Positions 13,216 to 25,636 of a stretch of 25,870 bases of DNA are shown here, one piece after another. Made by a program: the position numbers and the translations under genes. The notes beneath the pieces are model-generated. The model worked only from the letters and a program-made list of their open reading frames with translations. It searched no databases and was not told the DNA's origin. The number at the start of each line of letters is the position of its first letter. Position 1 is the first letter of the stretch. Source of the DNA: a virus; IMG/VR virus record IMGVR_UViG_3300021378_000142, positions 1 through 25,870 of that record; one strand, 5' to 3'.

Positions 13216-14682
13216 ATGGCTGCGATAATAGAAGTAAAATACTTCAACACATTCCTTCTTAAGAAAGTAAACAAAGCGCAAACTACGCCATCACCTGGTT
13301 ATGGTAACATACCTGTGTGGAATGGTTCAATGGGTATACCTGCTGCTAAAGGAGGTTATCCTAGACCTAATGGAAACGCTGTTCCTAATAATTGGGTGAT
13401 AGAAGAATCAAGAATAAACGGTGGTTATAATAACACAACAGTATCTTTTGGCGCTAAAGCTTATTTAGTAGAAGAAGAACCTAACGGAACTAGACGTGGT
13501 AACTCATTAATATACTCTGGTATATTTAACTCTAGAACCGGTATTAATAATACAAATGTGTTTTCAGTAGCAGAAGACATAATAAAATCTGTAGACCCAG
13601 CAAATGGTTCAATACAAAAACTATATGCAGAAGATACTAATTTAAATATATTTCAAGAACTAAAAGTAAGTAGAGCGTTAATAGATAAAGACGCTATATA
13701 CTCTGCTGAAGGTGGAGGAACCGTAACAAGTGCTAACTTAGTTATTGGAGCAATACAACCGTATTTAGGTAAATTTGGTATAAGTAAAGATCCTACTAGT
13801 TTTGCAATATATGGAAGAAATAAATATTTTTCTGATAGAAATAACAATGTTATATTAAGACTTTCTCAGTCAGGTTTAGATGAAATATCATCTGCTAATA
13901 TGGTAGATTATTTTAGAGATACTTTAGGTGGTTTAACAGTTGCTGGTGTTGAAGGTAAAATACTAGGTGGTTATGATATTTATAACAAACAGTATGTTGT
14001 ATCAACACAAGAACCTAACAACAACGCTATTGATTCTGGTTATGACACTTTAGCTTATGATGAACTTGTAAAAGGTTGGACTAGCTTTTTTAGTTATAAA
14101 CCAGATCAAATGTTTAGTTTAGGTAATCAGTTTTATAGTCTTAACTCAGGTAAACTTTATCAACATTATTCACAAAGTGGCACAAGAAATGTTTTTTATG
14201 GACAGACACAAACACCAACGTCTATAACTTTTGTATTTAACCCTAGCGTTGCAGCTTCTAAAAACTTTAAAACAGTTTCATACGAAGGAAGTAATGGGTG
14301 GCAAGTTAGCAGTTTTATATCAGATACAGTTGGTAGAAACTTAAACTTTTCAAATAACAACTGGGCTAATAGTGAAGATACTACAGCTCAAGTTTATAGT
14401 TATACACAAGGGGCTTATGTTCAAGATGGTATACAATACTATGCTGGATTTAATAGAAAAGAAAATTTATATGTAGCTAACTTAATAAACAATAGTCCCG
14501 CTACAAACGGAGAAGTTGGTAATATTCAAATAAACGCAGGTGGTGTTAGTTACAATGCTATGTCTGGTATTAAAGGATTTTACGCTACAGTAACAATATC
14601 AACAGATGCTGTTACAAATTTAGGAGGAGAAAAAGAATTATTTGCTGTAAGTACAGAATACGTAGCAAACAATGGATATTAA
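13216..14682 (+). CDS. Muzzle / stabilisation protein, C-terminal part as a separate gene
   Basis: The 488-residue product carries motifs that I recall from the C-terminal part of single-chain muzzle proteins: NGSIQKLYAEDTNLNIFQEL, KVSRALIDKDAIYSAEGGG, NLVIGAIQPYLGKFGISKDP, FAIYGRNKYFSDRNNNVIL, EGKILGGYDIYNKQYVVSTQ, and KGWTSFFSYKPDQMFSLGNQ followed by FYSLNSGKLYQHYS. The recurring short blades with aromatic and Gly-Tyr positions suggest a beta-propeller, as in P22 gp10. The first 120 residues are Gly/Asn/Pro-rich and less regular. It begins 24 bases after the stop of the 1313-residue protein, in a different reading frame offset and with its own A/T-rich leader, so it is translated separately. 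Either the ancestral gene split, or this lineage always had two subunits. Presumed location is the tail tip. A role as receptor-binding platform is possible. Confidence 0.66.
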   Translation: MAAIIEVKYFNTFLLKKVNKAQTTPSPGYGNIPVWNGSMGIPAAKGGYPRPNGNAVPNNWVIEESRINGGYNNTTVSFGAKAYLVEEEPNGTRRGNSLIYSGIFNSRTGINNTNVFSVAEDIIKSVDPANGSIQKLYAEDTNLNIFQELKVSRALIDKDAIYSAEGGGTVTSANLVIGAIQPYLGKFGISKDPTSFAIYGRNKYFSDRNNNVILRLSQSGLDEISSANMVDYFRDTLGGLTVAGVEGKILGGYDIYNKQYVVSTQEPNNNAIDSGYDTLAYDELVKGWTSFFSYKPDQMFSLGNQFYSLNSGKLYQHYSQSGTRNVFYGQTQTPTSITFVFNPSVAASKNFKTVSYEGSNGWQVSSFISDTVGRNLNFSNNNWANSEDTTAQVYSYTQGAYVQDGIQYYAGFNRKENLYVANLINNSPATNGEVGNIQINAGGVSYNAMSGIKGFYATVTISTDAVTNLGGEKELFAVSTEYVANNGY

Positions 14683-14704: not shown

Positions 14705-15370
14705 ATGGCAGTAATAACAAGCGCTATAATAGGAGGAGCAATGTCTTTAGCCGGTGGAATTTTTGGCGGTAGAGCAGCTAGAAGACAAGCTAGAGCAGCA
14801 AAATCAAGAATGAGAAAACTAAACTCTAAGCTTAATAGTTTAGAAGCTAATAGACAAGATATAATAAATCCTTACGCAGATGTTACAAGTACAGCTGATA
14901 TGCTAAGTAATCCTTTTACTCAGTTAAGTGTTTCTACAGCTGCTATGGATATGCAGATAGAACAAACAGACCAAGCCTTAGCAAACACGCTAGATGCACT
15001 TAGACAAACAGGTGGCGGATCTGGTGGCGCAACTGCTTTAGCTCAAGCTGCTTTACAAAGTAAAAAAGATGTTGCTGCAGACATTGAAAGACAAGAAGTT
15101 CAGAACGATAAAGCTAGAATACAAGGTGAAGCTAATTTACAAAAAGATTTAATAGCTGAAGAACAAAGAATGCAAAGTGTAGATGTACAAGGTAAGCAAT
15201 TTGTTTATAGCGAAACAGAACAAAGAGAACAACAACAATTAGATAGAGTTTCTAATCAAATAGCAGCTCAACAACAAAACTTAGCAACTGCTCAAGCTAA
15301 TCAATCAGCGGCTACCTCTGGTATGTTTAACGCACTTGGTGGTATTGCTACTAGCGCTTTTGGATCGTAA
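14705..15370 (+). CDS. Small internal virion protein, T7 gp14-like
   Basis: This 221-residue protein has the make-up of podovirus internal proteins that are ejected and insert into the cell envelope. The N-terminus is hydrophobic with glycine-zipper spacing (VITSAIIGGAMSLAGGIFGG, residues 3-22), followed by a very basic stretch (RAARRQARAAKSRMRK). A long Gln/Ala/Glu-rich helical region follows, with a glycine-rich break at about residue 102 (TGGGSGGATALAQAALQSKK). The C-terminus ends in a short hydrophobic Gly/Ala/Phe segment (MFNALGGIATSAFGS). T7 gp14 and P22 gp7/gp20 share this style: membrane-active front, coiled-coil body. It is followed at gaps of ten bases by a mid-size protein and then a giant one, the T7 gp14-gp15-gp16 order. 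Sequence similarity to T7 gp14 is not claimed; the call rests on composition and gene order. Confidence 0.65.
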   Translation: MAVITSAIIGGAMSLAGGIFGGRAARRQARAAKSRMRKLNSKLNSLEANRQDIINPYADVTSTADMLSNPFTQLSVSTAAMDMQIEQTDQALANTLDALRQTGGGSGGATALAQAALQSKKDVAADIERQEVQNDKARIQGEANLQKDLIAEEQRMQSVDVQGKQFVYSETEQREQQQLDRVSNQIAAQQQNLATAQANQSAATSGMFNALGGIATSAFGS

Positions 15371-15380
15371 ATTTTAAAAC

Positions 15381-16478
15381 ATGGAAAACAAAAATACAGT
15401 AAAAAATCTTTTCATAAGGCAAGCGCAAAATAGCGATGCGTTAGGTTATAATTTAGATTATCTGTCTGCACGTGTAGATAATAATTTTAATATATTAGGT
15501 AATGCATACGAAGGATCTGGTAGAGTATATGCTTATTTAAAAAATAAAATAAACAATAACAATTGTGATAGTGAAAACTGTAAAGATGAAATGCTAAAAC
15601 TACAACAGTTAGAAGCAGCTCCTCAAGCTTCTTTAGATTTTTTATCTGATATTGCAGCTGAACTACAAAAAACAGAAGACACTAATTTTGATCCAAACAA
15701 TAATTACATGTATTCTGTAGCTAATTCAGTGCTGTTAGGTAAGCCAGGTTTTTCTAAAACAGAAGGATATAATATTGTTTTAGATTTATTAGACAATGGA
15801 TCTCAAGAAATAACTTTTTCAGGTCCGTTTTTTGAAAGACCTTTAATAATAAACAATGTAACGCTAGGCTCTTTGCTAGATTCTGATACATCTATAGTTG
15901 CAACTACGCCTGATATAAATAAAGACATGTTAAGACTATTAGTTGAAACTGGTATATTTAACAAAGAAGATGTTTCTGATGAAGGAGATTTATTACCTAC
16001 AGCAAAGATACAAGAAACGTTTATATTAAAAGGACCTGATCAGAAGCCTGATTATGAAATTATAGATATAGGTATGGGAAAAGGTAGAAACGTTCTTAGG
16101 TTTGATCTAGACAAGATAGAAAAGAAAGCTACACCGTTTATAAACGCAGAGGTTGCAGGTTTATTAAGCTCTGAGCAAGAAGCTGTAGCTGCTTGGAACG
16201 TTTACATAGCTAAAGGTTCTAGCGTAGAAGAAGACGATCAAATGGTTCAAGATGCAAACGCTGGAAGTTTAGCATGGTCTTACGAAGAAGATTTACCTTT
16301 AACGCAAGATAATAAAGAATTATTCTTAGACAAATACAAAAAATATTTTATGAATAATTATTTAAAACAATTCATAACAAATAAATTTCCTACTGTTGAA
16401 GAAGACGCTGCTGTGTTTGATTTAGCAGAAGCAAGAAAAGCAAAGGCTGAAAAACTAAACCAAAGTCTAACAAGTTAA
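15381..16478 (+). CDS. Unknown protein in the gp15 position of the ejection cluster
   Basis: I do not recognise a family for this 365-residue protein. It is soluble, acidic and helical, with no signal peptide or membrane segment. Residues about 54-64 are Asn-rich and contain a Cys pair (NNNNCDSENC). A segment at about 220-245 (DQKPDYEIIDIGMGKGRNVL) is beta-like. The C-terminus is a charged helix rich in Ala, Lys and Glu. It lies between the gp14-like gene and the giant gene with ten-base gaps on both sides, the position of T7 gp15, the ejected protein that forms the periplasmic tube. A packaged internal protein is therefore the best guess, but only from location. A virion cargo protein of another kind is equally consistent. 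Confidence 0.68.
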   Translation: MENKNTVKNLFIRQAQNSDALGYNLDYLSARVDNNFNILGNAYEGSGRVYAYLKNKINNNNCDSENCKDEMLKLQQLEAAPQASLDFLSDIAAELQKTEDTNFDPNNNYMYSVANSVLLGKPGFSKTEGYNIVLDLLDNGSQEITFSGPFFERPLIINNVTLGSLLDSDTSIVATTPDINKDMLRLLVETGIFNKEDVSDEGDLLPTAKIQETFILKGPDQKPDYEIIDIGMGKGRNVLRFDLDKIEKKATPFINAEVAGLLSSEQEAVAAWNVYIAKGSSVEEDDQMVQDANAGSLAWSYEEDLPLTQDNKELFLDKYKKYFMNNYLKQFITNKFPTVEEDAAVFDLAEARKAKAEKLNQSLTS

Positions 16479-16488
16479 ATTAAGTTAA

Positions 16489-19400
16489 ATGACATTATTA
16501 GAATTTATAACAGACTTACAATCTCAAGGTTTTACAGACAAAGAGGTTTTTGACAAAGCTCAAGAGTTTAAAAAAAATAACGCTACTGAAGAAGTAGTTG
16601 AAGAAACTGAAGTAGTTGAAGAAATTGTAGAAGTGGGAAATTCAAACGATTCACCACCAACGGGTGCGGATGTGAATCAAACAACTGCTGCGCCCGACAA
16701 AAAAGAAACTACGGATTTAATATTGGAAGATGGTTCTTCGGTATCAGCAGAAGAGTTTGAAAAAAGAAAAGCTCAGTATGAAGAATATACAGCTGTGGCT
16801 AAACCAGAAGAAGTTATAACAGAAGGAGGTTATGACTACAAATATGATAACAAAGGAATTTATTATTATAAACCAAAAGGTTCTGAAGAAGAATGGAAAA
16901 CATATGAAAATAAAAAATCAAAGGCTAATTTATCTATAGCTTCTTTATTTAATCATTCAGATTTTAGCATTGAGGAATCTATAAAAACTGAAAAAGCATT
17001 AGAACAAAGTGAAAATTTATTAATTAACATTGATAGTAATGTAGAGGTTTCTAATAATAAAAACAACGAATTAGATAAAGAGCAACAAGTTTTTATTGAC
17101 GATTTTGTAAAAGACACTTCTTTAACAAAAAAAGACAATGTTAAGATATCTGAAGAAACTGATAAATGGTTTAATGTAGGTGCTGAAATACCAGAAACAG
17201 AATATGATACTACATACGCTAAAGAAGTTCCAACAGGAAAAATGCTACCAAATTCTGAATGGGTTGAAGCAGAGCAAAACGCAAAAGCAGCTTGGCAGGA
17301 TTTAAAACCTAAACCTGAAGGAGTTAACGAAGACGAGTGGATAAAAAACAAAATGAAACTAGACCACTCTGCTAAATTAACTGAAAAAGAAAAAGGAGAA
17401 AAACTAGAAACTTGGATAGAGAATAACGATGAAGATGGTTTTAATTGGAGAGCTTTAGCTTTAAAATTTTCACCTGCTGGTAGCGGTGTTGAAATGAAAG
17501 ATATATTTGATAGATCTTCAAAACAAAAACTTGCCGAGGCAATAGTTAAAAAACAACAACTAAACTTACAAGGTAAAAATAAAGATATAATTCAATGGTT
17601 TGATAATGCTAAAAAAAGTGTTGAAGAAATAAACACAGCTATATCTTCTATATATGAATCTAAATTTCAAACACCTAAAGAGGCTGAAGAAGCTAAAGCT
17701 TTAGTCACTAAACTAAGAAACAAAAGAGACGAAATAGTTAAATTAGGCGAAGAAAAAGAGGTTGATTTAAACAGTATAATAGAAGAAGGCAAAGATGTAA
17801 ACCAAAGAGTAGACTATTTAGAAAGAAATTTTAATTTTGTACCTATATTAACCACAAACTTAGAAACAGCTGGCTTACAAATGGGCGTTGCTTTAGCAGA
17901 TGTAGCTCACATGGCTTTAGACGTACCAAACGCCTTTGGTCTTGCAGATAACAAATATTTTAATGCTGTAGCACCTGTAGCTAATTTAGCTGCTAAACTA
18001 GTTCAATCACAACCTTATAAAGAGACTAGAGAAAAAATGAAAAGCTTTGTAGATAATTATACAGAGCAATCAATGAGCGGTATAGCTCACGCGCAAAGTT
18101 TATCTGATTTAGAAGACGGTGAAGACTGGGGTAGATATATGTCTACTTTGTTAGGTAGCCAAGCTATAAACACAGCTATATTATTTGGTACTGGTGGCGC
18201 TGCCTTGCCTATATTAACCGCGTCTGCTGTTGGTAGCAGTTATGGTGAAATGGAAAAAGAAATGAAAAACAATCCATTAATTAATTACTCTCCTTGGCAA
18301 ATGTATGGGGTTGCTATGGGTAATGGTGTTTTAGAATATGGTTCAGAAAGAATATCTTTAGGTATAATAGGTAGGTCTAAAGCTTTATTTAAAGCTTCTG
18401 GCCCTAAGGTTAGAAAAGGATTTGCGGAACAAGTTGCGAGCTTAACTACAAAAAAAGGAGCAACAAGAGCTTTTAAATCAGGAGCATACACTACGGCTGA
18501 TTTAGCAAAAGAATCTGGTTCAGAAGGTTTTGTAGAATATGGTGGTAACTGGTTTGATAGATATGTTTTAGGTAAAGATGTAAACTTGTTTGATGGCGTA
18601 GCTGACGCTACGTTTAGTGGTTTGGTGATGAGCGGTGGTGTATACAAAGCACCTTCTATATTTGCTAGCGTTTCACAGATGGTTCAAGGTCCAGATAGTA
18701 ATGCTAAAATAGCTAAAAATAGAGAAAAAATACAAGGACTGCAAGAGGCTTTAATGTCTAGTCCTGATATGTCAGATGCTAATAGAGCTAGGCTTAATGA
18801 TCAAATAGTTAGTCTTACAAAAGATTCTTCTAATGAAATAAATAAAACATTAAATAGATTTACTGAAATGGATAGATCTGAAATAGATGCTTTATCAGAT
18901 TTAGAACTATCTACATATAAAAATAGATTAGCAGTTGATGAGGTTAATTCAGATCCTAATTTTAACAATAAAGAAATTGAGTTAAAAAGATTAGCAGATG
19001 AAAGATATGAAATTAATCAAAAGAAAAACAAAATACTAGAGCCATATATTAAAGCAGATGCTGACATAGACACAGCTAATACAGTTAAACTAACTGAAAG
19101 AATAGACGCTGGTTCTAAAACTATAGCAGATCAATTAAAAAACGTGGGTGGTTTTAATGTTATTGAAAGTTCTAAAGAATTTGCTGATATTATAAAAGAA
19201 AAAGGCATTGATGGTAAAAGATCAAACGATTATGGTGTAATATATAAAAGCCCTGAGACCGGTAAAAAAGAAGTATTAATAAACCAACAACAAGCCTTAA
19301 AAGATAACGTTGCCACAACTTCGCAACATGAAGTATTACATGCTGTTGGTGCAAAAACTTTTGACTCTAGTCCAGAAAGCGCTATAAATGTAGGTAAGGC

Positions 19401-22400
19401 TTTAAAAAGCGTTATGGACAGTAAAGATATGTCTGTAGGTAAAGAAACTCAAGACATGTTTGATGATCTTAAAAAAGATTATAACGATGTAGTTAATAAC
19501 TCTAACTCAACGCCTGATCAAATTAAACAAGCAGAGGCATTATATATGGAAGAATATGTAATGACTGCTAGCGAAGGCATGCAAACTGGAGATATAAAAG
19601 AAACACCAACATTGTTAACTCAATTAAAAGAGTTTGGTAAAACTTTATCACAATTTTTTAAATCAGGACCTACACCTATAAATGTTAAATGGAACACTGG
19701 TAAAGACGTGTACGAATTTATAAAAGGTTTTAACAAGTCTGTTTTAGAAGGAAAAGGCTTAACTAAAGAGCAGTTAGACGTCGCAGAAAAAGGAGCTGAA
19801 GGAAAATTAATTTCTAAACCAACTATTGTTAAACCTGTTGAGAGTAAGTCTTCAAAAAAACTTACTAATGATTCTTATGATCAAACTAATAAATTAATGT
19901 CTGATCCTGATTTTGATGTTACATCTTCGCTTGACGCAAAAAGAGCATTGAAAGCCGCTGGTGCTGTTATAGAAACAACAACTAAAAGACTATTTGATAG
20001 TGTTTTACCAATGAATAGACAAGGTGTAACTAGAAATGATTTTAAAAAAATTATTGAAAGTGAATACATAAAAGTTCTTAGCGAGTACAATGCTGATAAA
20101 GACGTTAATATGCAAGGCGCTGGAAAACAAACAAGCACTTTGTTTAATTTAAGAGCAAATAAATTAGCTACTGAAAACTTTAAACAAGGGCAAGCGCAAA
20201 GTATTGATAGTGAAAAAGCTATTCAAATAGCTGACGAAACTAGTAGCAAAGAGTTTGATGAAAAAGCAAAAGAAGATACAGGTAGAAAAAAAGCATATCC
20301 ATCACAAATGGAATCTATTAGCAATACTATAAAACCTGAAACAATAGCTTCTATAAAAGAAGACGCTAAAAGAGAAATATTATTAAATGCTAAAAAAGGA
20401 CCTGATGCAATTATAAAGTCTATAAAAGAAGAAGCTAGAAATATAGCTAAAAAACTAGGAAAAGACACAGGTACATTTAAAAAAGGTTGGCCTAATTTTG
20501 TTAACAATATAGTAAAAGAAGGTTTAACTAAAGTTATACCTGCGGCTGCGTTAAAAAGAAGGTTTGGATCTGTATTAAACATAAAGCAAACAGGTGTTAC
20601 ACCTACTAAAAAAGTAAACCCTGTAACTGGAAAAGTAACAAACTTTAACAAACCAGTTTATGATATACCTAAGGCAAAAGATCAAGACTTAATAGATTAT
20701 TTTACAGGACAAGAAAAAAGAAAAACATCTTTGTTAGAGGTTTTAGGACAAGACTTAGTTGTTGAGCAAATGCAGGAACTAATGAATGATTCTGATTTTA
20801 TGTCTAAACTAGATACAGCAACTGATGGTAAAGCTGTTGAAATAATGGATAATCTTGATAAAAACTTAGACGCCAGACAACTAGAAGACTTGTCTTTAGA
20901 TACAGTTAAATCTAAAAAGAAAATTATAACTCCTAAAAAATCAGAAAAAGGTGTTCAAGCTGATCAAAGAAACGCTTTACCTAAAGGAGTAAAAGCTATA
21001 GAGCAAACTCCTGAAGATATTTTAAAAGTTGTTGATTTTTTATTAAATGATATAACTAAAGCCTTTAAAGACCTTAGTGGATTAATTGTAAAGGCTAGTA
21101 ATTTATCACCAGGAAACAATGCTTTAAGCGCTATAAAAAGAGGTTTTGCTTTTATTAGTAATTTTAAACAATCATCAAAAGAAAATATAAAATCTAACGA
21201 ACAAGCTTTACAAGAAGGTATTGTTCAAGATTTATCTGTTGCACAAAATAAAATAAAAAAACAAGGGTATAGTTTAGCTAAAGCCGACAAACTTAATAAA
21301 GAAGCCTTAAATAAAGCTATTGGTTCTCAAGTTGGTAAAACAAAAGTAATAGCAAATCAAAAAATACCAAAAACAATAGCCAAAGGTAAAAAAATATTTT
21401 ACGACGCTATAAAAAACATTGTTAAAACAAACCCTAAAAGTATTGCTGCAATTCAATTTATACTTGGTAATCAAAATGCTAACTCTGGTATTGCTAAAAA
21501 TTTAGCAACATTAACAAATGATGCTACCAAACCAGGAGATAAAAATTACGAAGAACATTGGTTTCCAACTTCTCAGTTTGTTTTAAATTTTATAAAATCC
21601 ATAAGTAAAGGTGTTTCAACTTTTAACAACTATATAAATTTTACTAACAAGCATTATTATCAAGAAATAATAAGTAAAGAAACACAAGCTATTGTTGATG
21701 CAACTTATGATATAACATTAGAAAATGGAGATGTTTTTGTTTGGAAAAGAAAAGACAACAACCATCCATTAATGACAAAAGCTATGGACAAGGCTATAGA
21801 TACTAATTCCAAAGAAGCTTGGGATATTGTTGATAGTCTAGCAGACATAAGAAAATATCCAGGAACTAATATAAAGTTATCAGGTGGAAAAGAAGGGCCT
21901 ATTGGTTTTGTTAACCCTTTTTTACATGGAAGAAATGGTGTTAGTGACGCTTTAAGGTACGGTATAAACGTGGCAAAAGTTAATCAAAAAAATCCTAATA
22001 TTCAGTATGAAGTTGCTGCTGTTATTCATGAAATAATTTTATTTGAGTCCACAAATGGCAAAAAAGGTATTTCTCGTCAACAGGCTAAACAGCGTACAAA
22101 AATATATGAGCCTATAGCTAATTTAGAACAAAAGTCTAGTAAAAAAAGAGCAAAAGAACAACCTAATAAAGTTAATGAAAACATGACAGCTCAGCAGCAA
22201 ATTGACGTTTTAGGTAATTTTGACAAAGCTGCTCAATTAGCTAGATCATTAAATACTCCTGAAAAAGGTATTAGTGTTTTTGATTTTGACGATACTTTAG
22301 CTAAAACAAAAGAAAAAGTAATAATAAATATGCCTGATGGCTCTAGTAAATCTATAAGCGCTTCTCAATTTGCTCAGCAAGCAGGTCAGCTAGAAAAACA

Positions 22401-24927
22401 AGGAGCTGAATTTGATTTTACTAATTTTGAAAATGTAAGTAAAGGAACTCAAAAAGGGCCATTAGCTGATCTTGCTTTAAAACGTCAAGACAAGTTTGGT
22501 AGTAAAGATATATTTGTATTAACAGCTAGACCACAAATAGCAGCAACAGGTATTAAAACATTTTTAGATGGCATAGGTTTAAACTTACCTCTTTCTAATA
22601 TAACAGGTTTAGAAAATGGAACTCCGCAAGCTAAAGGCGCTTGGGTTGCTGGAAAAGCAGCCGAAGGTTATAATAACTTTTATTTTGCAGATGACGCTTA
22701 CAAAAACGTAAAAGCTGTTTCAAACATACTTGATCAAATAGATGTTAAATCTAAAGTTCAAATAGCTAAATCAAGCAAAAAAAGAACCTTTAACACTGTA
22801 ATGAACAATGTCTTAGAAGATTCTACAGGTATAAAATCTGAGGCTGAATTTTCTAGAGCAAGAGCACAAACTGTTGGCGCTAAAAAAGGTAAATTTAATT
22901 TCTTTACAACACCATCTGCAGAAGATTTTGTAGGTTTAATATATAAGTTTTTAGGTAAAGGAAAAGTTGGTGACGCGCAGTTTCAATTTTTTCAAGACAA
23001 TTTAATTGATCCTTATAATAGAGCAGAACAAGCTGTAACTAGAGCTAAAATAACTGCTGCCAACGATTTCAAAGCATTAAAGAATAGTCTTAAGACATTA
23101 CCTAAATCATTATCTAAACAAACAGGTATTGGAGGATTCACATTTGGTCAAGCGTCTAGAGTTGCAGCGTGGACAAGACAAGGTATGGAAGTTCCTGGTT
23201 TATCTAAAAGAGACGCTAAAGAACTAAATGATTTTGTAAAAAACAAAGCTGAATTAGATGTTTTTGTTGATGAATTGATAAAAATACAAAAAGGTAAACC
23301 ATACCCTAAACCTGGTCAAAACTGGTTAGCTGGTAACATAACGTCAGACATTGTTAATGAAATAAATAAAGTTAACAGAAAAGAATACATGCAAGAGTTT
23401 AATGAAAATGTTGATATAATATTTTCAGATAAAGTAATGAATAAACTTGAAGCTGCTTATGGTCCTAAATACGTAGAAGCTTTACGTGATACGTTGCGTA
23501 GAATGAAGTCAGGTTCTAATAGACCTGTAGGTAATTCAAGAATTGTAGATGGATTATTAAATTGGTTAAACAACTCTGTTGGTGCTATAATGTTCTTAAA
23601 CACAAGATCTGCAGTGTTACAAACTATATCTGCAGTAAACTTTATAAACTTTGGTAACAACAACCTTGTAGCTGCTGGTAAAGCTTTTGCAAACCAAAAA
23701 CAATATTGGAAAGACTTTATGACATTATTTAATTCACCTTACTTAGTTGAAAGACGTGATGGGTTAAAGATCAATGTTAGTGAATCTGAAATAGCAGATG
23801 CTGTAGCAGAAAGTTCTAATAAACCAAAAGCATTTTTAAACTTACTACTTAATAAAGGTTTTGTTCTTACGAGATTTGCAGATAGTTTTGCTATTGCAGC
23901 TGGTGGCTCTACGTTTTATAGAAATCAAGTTGCTGCTTATGTTAAAAGTGGTATGGATCAAAAAGCTGCAGAAAAACAAGCGTTTGATGATTTCTATGCT
24001 ATTGCAGAAACAAGTCAACAGTCTAGTAATCCTAGTAAAATATCACAACAACAAGCCTCAGGTGCTGGTCGTGTAATATTAGCTTTTGCTAACACACCAA
24101 TGCAATATGCTCGTATAATAAAAAGAGCTAGTCAAGATCTTATAAACGGTAGAGGTGATTGGAAAACTAATGTTTCTAAAATAGTTTATTACGGAGCAAT
24201 GCAAAATCTTATGTTTAATGCTCTGCAAACAGCGTTATTTGCTTTAGCGTTTGGTGAAGAAGATGAAGAACAAGAAGACAAAACAGGTAGAATAGCAAAT
24301 GGTATGGCTGATTCATTGTTAAGAGGTCTTGGTATACAAGGAGCTGCAGTTGTTGCAATGAAAGATGCGTTAATTACTATATACGAACAAGCTAACAAAG
24401 AAAAAGGAACGCCTGAGTTTAGAAAAGCTATAGCTGATCTGTTTGGTTTTTCACCACCATTAGATTCTAAAGTTAGAAAACTAACAAGTGGTCTTAATAC
24501 ATTATCATGGGAGCGTGAAAAAATGAGTCAAGAAGGTTTTAACTTAAATAACCCTGCTTATTTAGCATTTGCTCAAGTTTTAGCTGGCTTAACAAACGTA
24601 CCGCTTGATAGAGCAATACAAAAAATAAACAACTTAAGAGCTGTAACAAGTGATAGTTCTGCTAAGTGGCAAAAGGTTGCTTTGCTTATGGGTTGGTCAA
24701 CATGGGATTTAGGCTTACCATATTATGGTGTTGAAGACAAGGTTGAAATGACACCTCAAATGATATTAAAAGAAAAAGTAAATAAAATGAAAAAAGAAAC
24801 TAGTACTAAACAACAAAAAGAAACGTTGTTAGAATTAGGACTTACTAAACAAGAAATAAAAGCTTTAAAATACGAAGAAGCAAGGGTTAAAAAAATAATT
24901 GAATTACAAGAAAAAAACAAAAAATAA
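16489..24927 (+). CDS. Giant polyvalent internal virion protein with metallopeptidase and HAD domains
   Basis: At 2812 residues this fits the large polyvalent proteins that phages package and inject. The N-terminus is acidic and low in complexity (EVVEET repeats at 35-46). Hydrophobic segments lie at about 445-480, 553-583 and 608-632. A zincin motif HEVLHAVG has H947, E948 and H951; E1021 or E1022 in YMEEYVM could be the third zinc ligand. A complete HAD phosphatase set follows: DFDDT (D1932, D1934), T2012 in VLTARP, K2049 and D2068/D2069 in YFADDAY. The last 650 residues contain PSAEDFVGLIYKFLGKGKVG (from 2143) and FANTPMQYARIIKRA (about 2532), familiar from marine phage giant proteins, and hydrophobic stretches at about 2358-2392 and 2566-2590. 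KSSKK occurs at 1120, 1882 and 2094, all at domain borders. It occupies the T7 gp16 position, but no lytic transglycosylase motif is visible. No RNA polymerase motif is visible either. The gene overlaps the next by one base. Confidence 0.8.
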   Translation: MTLLEFITDLQSQGFTDKEVFDKAQEFKKNNATEEVVEETEVVEEIVEVGNSNDSPPTGADVNQTTAAPDKKETTDLILEDGSSVSAEEFEKRKAQYEEYTAVAKPEEVITEGGYDYKYDNKGIYYYKPKGSEEEWKTYENKKSKANLSIASLFNHSDFSIEESIKTEKALEQSENLLINIDSNVEVSNNKNNELDKEQQVFIDDFVKDTSLTKKDNVKISEETDKWFNVGAEIPETEYDTTYAKEVPTGKMLPNSEWVEAEQNAKAAWQDLKPKPEGVNEDEWIKNKMKLDHSAKLTEKEKGEKLETWIENNDEDGFNWRALALKFSPAGSGVEMKDIFDRSSKQKLAEAIVKKQQLNLQGKNKDIIQWFDNAKKSVEEINTAISSIYESKFQTPKEAEEAKALVTKLRNKRDEIVKLGEEKEVDLNSIIEEGKDVNQRVDYLERNFNFVPILTTNLETAGLQMGVALADVAHMALDVPNAFGLADNKYFNAVAPVANLAAKLVQSQPYKETREKMKSFVDNYTEQSMSGIAHAQSLSDLEDGEDWGRYMSTLLGSQAINTAILFGTGGAALPILTASAVGSSYGEMEKEMKNNPLINYSPWQMYGVAMGNGVLEYGSERISLGIIGRSKALFKASGPKVRKGFAEQVASLTTKKGATRAFKSGAYTTADLAKESGSEGFVEYGGNWFDRYVLGKDVNLFDGVADATFSGLVMSGGVYKAPSIFASVSQMVQGPDSNAKIAKNREKIQGLQEALMSSPDMSDANRARLNDQIVSLTKDSSNEINKTLNRFTEMDRSEIDALSDLELSTYKNRLAVDEVNSDPNFNNKEIELKRLADERYEINQKKNKILEPYIKADADIDTANTVKLTERIDAGSKTIADQLKNVGGFNVIESSKEFADIIKEKGIDGKRSNDYGVIYKSPETGKKEVLINQQQALKDNVATTSQHEVLHAVGAKTFDSSPESAINVGKALKSVMDSKDMSVGKETQDMFDDLKKDYNDVVNNSNSTPDQIKQAEALYMEEYVMTASEGMQTGDIKETPTLLTQLKEFGKTLSQFFKSGPTPINVKWNTGKDVYEFIKGFNKSVLEGKGLTKEQLDVAEKGAEGKLISKPTIVKPVESKSSKKLTNDSYDQTNKLMSDPDFDVTSSLDAKRALKAAGAVIETTTKRLFDSVLPMNRQGVTRNDFKKIIESEYIKVLSEYNADKDVNMQGAGKQTSTLFNLRANKLATENFKQGQAQSIDSEKAIQIADETSSKEFDEKAKEDTGRKKAYPSQMESISNTIKPETIASIKEDAKREILLNAKKGPDAIIKSIKEEARNIAKKLGKDTGTFKKGWPNFVNNIVKEGLTKVIPAAALKRRFGSVLNIKQTGVTPTKKVNPVTGKVTNFNKPVYDIPKAKDQDLIDYFTGQEKRKTSLLEVLGQDLVVEQMQELMNDSDFMSKLDTATDGKAVEIMDNLDKNLDARQLEDLSLDTVKSKKKIITPKKSEKGVQADQRNALPKGVKAIEQTPEDILKVVDFLLNDITKAFKDLSGLIVKASNLSPGNNALSAIKRGFAFISNFKQSSKENIKSNEQALQEGIVQDLSVAQNKIKKQGYSLAKADKLNKEALNKAIGSQVGKTKVIANQKIPKTIAKGKKIFYDAIKNIVKTNPKSIAAIQFILGNQNANSGIAKNLATLTNDATKPGDKNYEEHWFPTSQFVLNFIKSISKGVSTFNNYINFTNKHYYQEIISKETQAIVDATYDITLENGDVFVWKRKDNNHPLMTKAMDKAIDTNSKEAWDIVDSLADIRKYPGTNIKLSGGKEGPIGFVNPFLHGRNGVSDALRYGINVAKVNQKNPNIQYEVAAVIHEIILFESTNGKKGISRQQAKQRTKIYEPIANLEQKSSKKRAKEQPNKVNENMTAQQQIDVLGNFDKAAQLARSLNTPEKGISVFDFDDTLAKTKEKVIINMPDGSSKSISASQFAQQAGQLEKQGAEFDFTNFENVSKGTQKGPLADLALKRQDKFGSKDIFVLTARPQIAATGIKTFLDGIGLNLPLSNITGLENGTPQAKGAWVAGKAAEGYNNFYFADDAYKNVKAVSNILDQIDVKSKVQIAKSSKKRTFNTVMNNVLEDSTGIKSEAEFSRARAQTVGAKKGKFNFFTTPSAEDFVGLIYKFLGKGKVGDAQFQFFQDNLIDPYNRAEQAVTRAKITAANDFKALKNSLKTLPKSLSKQTGIGGFTFGQASRVAAWTRQGMEVPGLSKRDAKELNDFVKNKAELDVFVDELIKIQKGKPYPKPGQNWLAGNITSDIVNEINKVNRKEYMQEFNENVDIIFSDKVMNKLEAAYGPKYVEALRDTLRRMKSGSNRPVGNSRIVDGLLNWLNNSVGAIMFLNTRSAVLQTISAVNFINFGNNNLVAAGKAFANQKQYWKDFMTLFNSPYLVERRDGLKINVSESEIADAVAESSNKPKAFLNLLLNKGFVLTRFADSFAIAAGGSTFYRNQVAAYVKSGMDQKAAEKQAFDDFYAIAETSQQSSNPSKISQQQASGAGRVILAFANTPMQYARIIKRASQDLINGRGDWKTNVSKIVYYGAMQNLMFNALQTALFALAFGEEDEEQEDKTGRIANGMADSLLRGLGIQGAAVVAMKDALITIYEQANKEKGTPEFRKAIADLFGFSPPLDSKVRKLTSGLNTLSWEREKMSQEGFNLNNPAYLAFAQVLAGLTNVPLDRAIQKINNLRAVTSDSSAKWQKVALLMGWSTWDLGLPYYGVEDKVEMTPQMILKEKVNKMKKETSTKQQKETLLELGLTKQEIKALKYEEARVKKIIELQEKNKK
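16591..16626 (+). repeat. 18-bp tandem repeat inside the giant gene
   Basis: Two adjacent 18-base units (16591-16608 and 16609-16626) differ at one position and encode EVVEET and EVVEEI in the acidic N-terminal tail. The unit length is a multiple of three, so copy-number change would keep the frame. Confidence 0.75.
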
Positions 24928-25330: not shown

Positions 25331-25636
25331 ATGGCACAAGAAATAAGTGAACAAACTAAAGTAACACTTGACCTTAAAACTATAGGAACAATAGTAGGAT
25401 TTACTATAGCGCTAGCTACAACTTATTTTACTTTAAAAGCAGATATAGCTATCGCTATGGAAATGCCTGAACCTGAAATATCTAGTGTAGAGTTTAAATA
25501 CAAAGACGAACTAATACGATCTAATGTAGAAAAAGTAATAGAACAAGTTGATAACATTGAAAAAGATGTTGAAGAAATAAAAGAAATGATGAAAACTTTA
25601 GACGCAAGATTGTATGAAATACAAAAAAGACCATGA
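25331..25636 (+). CDS. Single-pass membrane protein with cytoplasmic or periplasmic coiled coil
   Basis: The 101-residue product has a short polar N-terminus, one membrane segment (about 17-36, TIGTIVGFTIALATTYFTLK), then a linker with MEMPEPEISSVEF and a long charged heptad region (about 60-98, EKVIEQVDNIEKDVEEIKEM). It has no Cys and no catalytic motif. I recall proteins of this shape near lysis genes in marine flavobacterial phages, where they are annotated as holin-like or unknown. A holin, a spanin-like or an antiholin role would fit one membrane helix plus coiled coil, but no lysin is in view to support that. Its stop overlaps the next start (ATGA), so it is translationally coupled to the secreted thioredoxin-fold protein. 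Confidence 0.7.
   Translation: MAQEISEQTKVTLDLKTIGTIVGFTIALATTYFTLKADIAIAMEMPEPEISSVEFKYKDELIRSNVEKVIEQVDNIEKDVEEIKEMMKTLDARLYEIQKRP

What the first reader, a model, noticed from the sequence alone, without database searches (positions are those of the whole stretch)
16489..24927. Giant injected protein joining a zincin peptidase and a HAD phosphatase
The 2812-residue product carries HEVLHAVG (residues 947-954) with a downstream EE pair (1021-1022) that could supply the third zinc ligand, and the full HAD set D1932/D1934, T2012, K2049, D2068/D2069. Both active sites look intact. Hydrophobic segments flank them. If packaged and ejected, this would deliver a protease and a phosphatase to the host cell in one chain. 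Large polyvalent proteins are known in phages and plasmids, but the targets of such a pair are, to my knowledge, unstudied.
Basis: partly seen in the sequence, partly recalled or inferred. Interest (0 to 1): 0.75.

Follow-up and report, generated by a model that had tools for sequence, protein, structure and literature searches.

The report
Giant phage protein with two enzymes
A marine bacterial virus carries a 2812-residue protein, probably packed in its particle and injected into the host, that joins a zinc-protease domain with a phosphatase domain; hundreds of related uncultured viruses carry the same phosphatase, and most of those examined also keep the protease, but what the two enzymes act on is unknown.

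Summary
The ORF at 16489-24927 encodes 2812 aa with HEVLH at 947-951 and the HAD motifs as listed. In 81 relatives chosen for HExxH, the third ligand E1022 (not E1021) is invariant, also when held out of the alignment (80/80), in a region with only 16% mean identity. All six HAD catalytic residues are invariant in 81 relatives. Predicted models give a zincin core and a HAD Rossmann core; PDB neighbours of the second are almost all HAD enzymes. The gene is the last and largest of a conserved small-medium-giant trio behind the tail muzzle gene of a crAss-related flavophage. In cultured phage phi18:3 all three counterparts carry MS/MS-based annotation, so packaging is well supported; injection, zinc binding and both activities are untested. 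The C-terminal fold matches phage 'polyvalent' proteins. This is a new domain architecture of a known kind (polyvalent/ejection protein). New here: the first 1900 residues, zincin included, stay near 25% identity even where the C-terminus is 94% identical, while catalytic residues stay fixed; two relatives insert a zeta-toxin/PNK-like kinase into the HAD; the cultured relatives checked lack the HAD.

The parts
16489..24927 (+). giant gene, 2812 aa, zincin + HAD polyvalent/ejection protein
   Evidence: ORF; 27 relatives by tblastn; 96-member family set
17671..19005 (+). N-terminal module, residues 395-839, with the strongest hydrophobic stretch at 563-581 (18175-18231)
   Evidence: about 24% identical to structural proteins of cultured Cellulophaga and Tenacibaculum phages; hydropathy
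19126..19668 (+). zincin-fold metallopeptidase domain, about residues 880-1060
   Evidence: model pLDDT 85, core strand-helix-strand-strand, HExxH helix, Glu helix; invariant ligands
19327..19341 (+). HEVLH motif, residues 947-951
   Evidence: invariant in 81/81 relatives chosen for HExxH
19552..19554 (+). E1022, predicted third zinc ligand
   Evidence: 81/81 aligned, 80/80 held out
21406..22068 (+). third conserved segment, residues about 1640-1860, EEHxxP, function unknown
   Evidence: E1689 and H1690 in 58/59 relatives; basic residue column 1789 is R in 57/59, K here
22261..22758 (+). HAD phosphatase domain, residues about 1925-2090
   Evidence: motifs I-IV invariant in 81/81; model topology; VIA-align neighbours Z 6.5-9.3, almost all HAD enzymes
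22816..24858 (+). conserved helical C-terminal domain, residues 2110-2790
   Evidence: BFVD matches to phage proteins named polyvalent/large polyvalent protein; sequence homology to Gundel_1 gp74
13216..14682 (+). muzzle (MUZ) C-terminal domain protein of the tail
   Evidence: Pfam PF25729 and PF25731 over their cut-offs; upstream of the giant gene in 72 of 95 loci
14705..15370 (+). small ejection-type virion protein, 221 aa
   Evidence: profile homology to the small virion proteins in the same slot of cultured relatives, hhalign E 6.7e-14; upstream in 84 of 95 loci
15381..16478 (+). medium protein of the trio, 365 aa
   Evidence: adjacent upstream in 33 of 95 loci; no family match
25331..25636 (+). 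small downstream protein, weak holin-like match
   Evidence: PHROG 1296 holin E 9e-5 over a short stretch; downstream in 49 of 95 loci

Best explanation
The protein is the largest of three virion-packaged ejection ('cargo') proteins of a crAss-related flavobacterial podophage. Position and homology place it inside the particle (supported). It is proposed to leave through the tail before or with the DNA (inferred). Its N-terminal hydrophobic module would help it enter the envelope (inferred). The zincin domain refolds and cleaves either its own chain, freeing parts of the polyprotein, or a variable host or defence protein (inferred, not separated). The HAD domain acts in the cytoplasm as a phosphomonoesterase on a substrate shared by many hosts, such as nucleotides, nucleic-acid ends or a signal molecule (inferred from its conservation). 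The helical C-terminus is the shared polyvalent-protein scaffold for packaging or anchoring (fold match shown, role inferred).
For: Invariant zincin ligands and HAD residues. Predicted folds. C-terminal fold shared with phage proteins named polyvalent. Conserved order muzzle - small - medium - giant in relatives and in cultured phages, with the small protein homologous by profile. In phi18:3 the counterparts gp120, gp121 and gp123 are annotated from MS/MS proteomics, and gp123 matches residues 526-799. In crAss001 the genes behind the muzzle gene encode virion cargo proteins (PMC10172136). elemoF gp18 has a homologous zincin.
Against: No virion proteomics exists here for a HAD-bearing member, and phi18:3 gp123 has neither the zincin nor the HAD motifs. 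Full-length relatives exist whose zincin motif is lost or altered (HExxxH in L076 and L089, degenerate in others), so the protease is not essential everywhere. The zincin fold match is only moderate (Z 6.1, and Foldseek found none at E below 0.001).
Confidence: 0.72

Rival explanations
1. The zincin is a self-processing protease: it cuts the giant chain during assembly or after ejection, and has no host target.
For: Proposed for zincins of polyvalent proteins; P1 DdrB is processed before packaging (PMC5512222). A cis-acting protease could drift together with its own site, which fits the divergence.
Against: N4 virion RNAP, which has a zincin, is packaged unprocessed (PMC5512222). No cleavage site could be tested here. 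The split ORFs seen in relatives are single-base frameshifts, not natural processing products.
Confidence: 0.4
2. The HAD is a nucleic-acid end-healing phosphatase, like the phosphatase half of polynucleotide kinase-phosphatase, repairing RNA or DNA ends made by host defence.
For: Two relatives (L019, L021) nest an AAA_33/zeta-toxin-type P-loop kinase in the HAD after motif I, and L018 has one between zincin and HAD. PNK-HAD fusions and HAD end-repair phosphatases are known in jumbo phages (PMC7824862).
Against: The window protein has no kinase. AAA_33 and Zeta_toxin both pass their cut-offs, so the kinase may act on UDP-sugars instead. PDB neighbours include many HAD classes.
Confidence: 0.25
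3. It is a structural virion protein whose enzyme-like domains are relics with no catalytic role.
For: Homologues are annotated only as structural proteins; some members have a degenerate zincin.
Against: Catalytic residues are the only invariant positions of the zincin region while the rest diverges to about 25% identity; all HAD motifs are invariant.
Confidence: 0.12
4. The protein is made late and is not packaged.
For: No direct virion data for this family.
Against: Gene slot and homology to MS/MS-annotated virion proteins; packaged cargo in crAss001.
Confidence: 0.08

Closest known systems
Polyvalent proteins (Iyer et al. 2017, PMC5512222)
   Same: One chain joins unrelated enzyme domains; encoded with portal-terminase virion genes; zincin is their most common domain; C-terminal fold matches proteins so named
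   Different: The passages returned name no HAD or phosphatase domain ('phosphatase' 0 occurrences in the main text); supplementary lists were not read
Giant structural proteins of cultured flavophages (elemoF gp18, Gundel_1 gp74, phi18:3 gp123, phi38:1 gp101)
   Same: Same gene slot; parts of the N-terminus, zincin or C-terminus homologous
   Different: None of the six phage records checked has the HAD
crAss001 cargo proteins (PMC10172136)
   Same: Encoded behind the muzzle gene and carried in the virion
   Different: No sequence homology to solved gp45 found for the neighbouring small protein; no zincin named in that paper
N4 virion RNA polymerase
   Same: Giant ejected protein with a zincin-like HExxH domain and a large helical C-terminus (PMC12633501)
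   Different: Carries an RNA polymerase, no HAD named
T4-type polynucleotide kinase-phosphatase
   Same: HAD joined to a P-loop kinase in two relatives
   Different: Kinase absent in the window; nested in the HAD rather than N-terminal

Membership tests
Zincin metallopeptidase | HExxH on a helix plus a Glu on a second helix | tested here: met
   H947, E948, H951, E1022 invariant; HExxH in helix 128-137 and E206 (= E1022) in helix 193-217 of the model
Zincin metallopeptidase | three-stranded sheet flanked by an N-terminal helix | tested here: met
   model strands 70-76, 100-104, 111-116 and helices 35-66 and 79-89, pLDDT above 90 in most of the core
Zincin metallopeptidase | zinc binding and peptide cleavage | not testable with these tools
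HAD phosphatase | motifs DxDxT, T, K, DD in order | tested here: met
   81/81
HAD phosphatase | Rossmann-type HAD core | tested here: met
   secondary structure order and VIA-align neighbours, Z 6.5-9.3
HAD phosphatase | phosphatase activity | not testable with these tools
   needs biochemistry
Polyvalent protein | two or more unrelated enzyme domains in one chain | tested here: met
   zincin and HAD
Polyvalent protein | encoded among portal-terminase virion genes | tested here: met
   TerL, portal and muzzle genes upstream
Polyvalent protein | injected into the host | not testable with these tools
   supported only by homology and gene position
Crassvirales cargo protein | homology to crAss001 gp45 | tested here: inconclusive
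   no PDB sequence match for the neighbouring small protein; the giant itself was not compared with gp45 directly
Polynucleotide kinase-phosphatase | P-loop kinase in the same protein | tested here: not met
   the only pattern match in the window protein is GSQVGKT, not a typical kinase P-loop, and no kinase family matches; present in relatives only

The most novel reading that the evidence does not exclude
A two-enzyme injected effector: a fast-diversifying zincin that cleaves variable host or defence proteins, joined to a conserved HAD that removes phosphate from a universal host substrate, in some lineages with an added kinase, forming a modular early-infection weapon in uncultured marine flavophages.
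Probability: 0.3. Interest if true: 0.8.

Novelty: new variant of a known kind. Interest (0 to 1): 0.6.

Why it matters
Phage ejection proteins are among the first viral proteins in the host. A protease-phosphatase pairing in one such protein, seen in many uncultured phages, offers a testable route to new host targets or counter-defence functions. The contrast between a diverging protease scaffold with fixed catalytic residues and a conserved phosphatase suggests different kinds of target for the two halves.

Tried and rejected
Pfam, PHROG and NCBIfam searches with the whole protein gave no family. PDB sequence-profile searches with the zincin, HAD and C-terminal alignments gave nothing significant. 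Foldseek against PDB gave no hit at E below 0.001 for either model; the VIA-align second look was needed. The split ORFs in L016, L023 and L027 looked like natural domain splits but are single-base frameshifts, probably sequence errors. Plasmid search: no match. HAD alone in cultured phages: no tblastn match and no profile match in six records, though that empty answer had no positive control. The medium protein shows no significant profile match to its counterparts. An LPD3 family search in the record was empty and its controls were empty too, so it shows nothing. A family absent from the fold lists is not taken as evidence.

Full report
The window is a whole IMG/VR virus record of 25,870 bases, probably a genome fragment, since the terminase gene runs off its start. 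The ORF 16489-24927 encodes 2812 aa, and the named residues are at the stated positions. No Pfam, PHROG or NCBIfam family matches the whole protein.

Relatives. After removing duplicates, 96 proteins with a HAD were used. Most complete ones are about 2000-3600 aa with HExxH typically 830-1230 residues before the HAD. Of 96, 81 have HExxH; the other 15 include partial ORFs, two with HExxxH and several with a recognisable but altered zincin. The set was fetched largely through the HAD, so it cannot show how often the HAD itself is lost.

Zincin. In an alignment of 81 relatives chosen for HExxH the only invariant columns are H947, E948, H951 and E1022, at 16% mean identity. E1022 was not a selection criterion and is E in 80/80 held-out sequences; E1021 varies. 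The model of residues 817-1111 has mean pLDDT 85 and the order strand, helix, two strands, HExxH helix, Glu helix. The best structural neighbours are lethal-factor-type zincins, Z 6.1, rmsd 4.7 over 170 residues, which is moderate, and one of these alignments covers the non-catalytic domain of that fold. Iyer et al. matched the N4 zincin to the same fold (PMC5512222).

HAD. D1932, D1934, T1936, T2012, R2014, K2049, D2068 and D2069 are invariant in 81/81. The model of residues 1905-2790 (pLDDT 79) shows the HAD order of elements with the motifs at strand ends. Its VIA-align neighbours over model residues 18-185 are almost all HAD enzymes, Z 6.5-9.3, including phosphoserine phosphatase, acid phosphatases and the HAD domain of the Legionella effector Lem4. 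The substrate is not predicted.

C-terminus. The C-terminal fold matches many predicted phage proteins, several named 'large polyvalent protein' or 'PolyVal', E about 1e-7 to 1e-5, besides four close homologues from uncultured viruses at E below 1e-49. It is homologous by sequence to part of Tenacibaculum phage Gundel_1 gp74.

Place in the virus. The window holds terminase, portal and muzzle genes. The nearest cultured portals are from Maribacter, Flavobacterium, Cellulophaga and Tenacibaculum phages and one uncultured spring virus. Behind the muzzle gene come a 221-aa and a 365-aa protein and then the giant. The same small-medium-giant order is present in phi18:3, phi38:1, Gundel_1, elemoF and Panino. 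The small protein is homologous to theirs by profile comparison. In phi18:3 all three are annotated as virion proteins from MS/MS proteomics. Across the relatives the muzzle protein is upstream in 72 and the small protein in 84 of 95 loci. This supports packaging; ejection is inferred from crAss001 (PMC10172136) and, from general knowledge, from podophage ejection proteins such as those of T7 and P22.

Mosaic evolution. Against L001, L006 and L008 the first 1900 residues are about 22-28% identical, the HAD 68-77%, the C-terminus 89-93%, and most upstream neighbours (muzzle, small, medium) about 48-59%. Over 400 pairs of relatives, median zincin identity stays at 24-29% while median C-terminal identity rises from 0.46 to 0.76 between bands; against L008, whose C-terminus is 94% identical to the window's, the zincin is 26% identical. 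The fixed ligands in this background argue for retained catalysis. Recombination of the C-terminal part and fast divergence of the N-terminal part both fit; they were not separated.

What it does. The best reading is an ejected polyvalent protein with an active protease and an active phosphatase. Whether the protease acts on its own chain or on a host protein cannot be decided here: a self-cutting protease could drift along with its own site, so divergence alone does not show a host arms race. The conserved HAD suggests a substrate common to many hosts. Kinase modules in L018, L019 and L021 (AAA_33 and Zeta_toxin over cut-off) hint at phosphate chemistry on nucleotides, nucleic-acid ends or sugars.

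Novelty. Polyvalent proteins and their zincins are known. In the parts of Iyer et al. 2017 that were read, no HAD is named, and six phage records checked lack it. It is a new architecture of a known kind.

Noticed in passing
L019:10190-10717, L021:13439-13972, L018:11843-12475: P-loop kinase modules (AAA_33 and Zeta_toxin over cut-off), nested in the HAD after motif I in L019 and L021, between zincin and HAD in L018.
   Followed up: partly
window 21406-22068: Third conserved segment with EEHxxP and a conserved basic residue about 100 residues later; no family match.
   Followed up: partly
window 16489-22188 against 22201-24927: Sharp identity jump at about residue 1900: variable N-terminal 1900 residues, conserved HAD and C-terminus.
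   Followed up: yes
L016, L023, L027: Giant gene split by single-base frameshifts, probably sequence errors.
   Followed up: yes
L112:741-12320: The 3859-aa giant protein of the Manatee Spring virus has two HExxH motifs.
   Followed up: no
L111:12229-17718: The giant protein of Maribacter phage Panino is annotated as a tRNA methyltransferase; no Pfam match supports this.
   Followed up: partly
L114-L126: HAD relatives in MAG contigs assigned to unrelated taxa (Woesearchaeota, Aliivibrio, Ilumatobacteraceae and others), possibly viral contigs binned with them.
   Followed up: no
L028:7924-15372: Gundel_1 gp74 has a weak GNAT acetyltransferase match at residues 896-966 besides its HExxH.
   Followed up: no
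L113:16719-27803: elemoF gp18 (3694 aa) has a DUF3293 domain upstream of its zincin.
   Followed up: no
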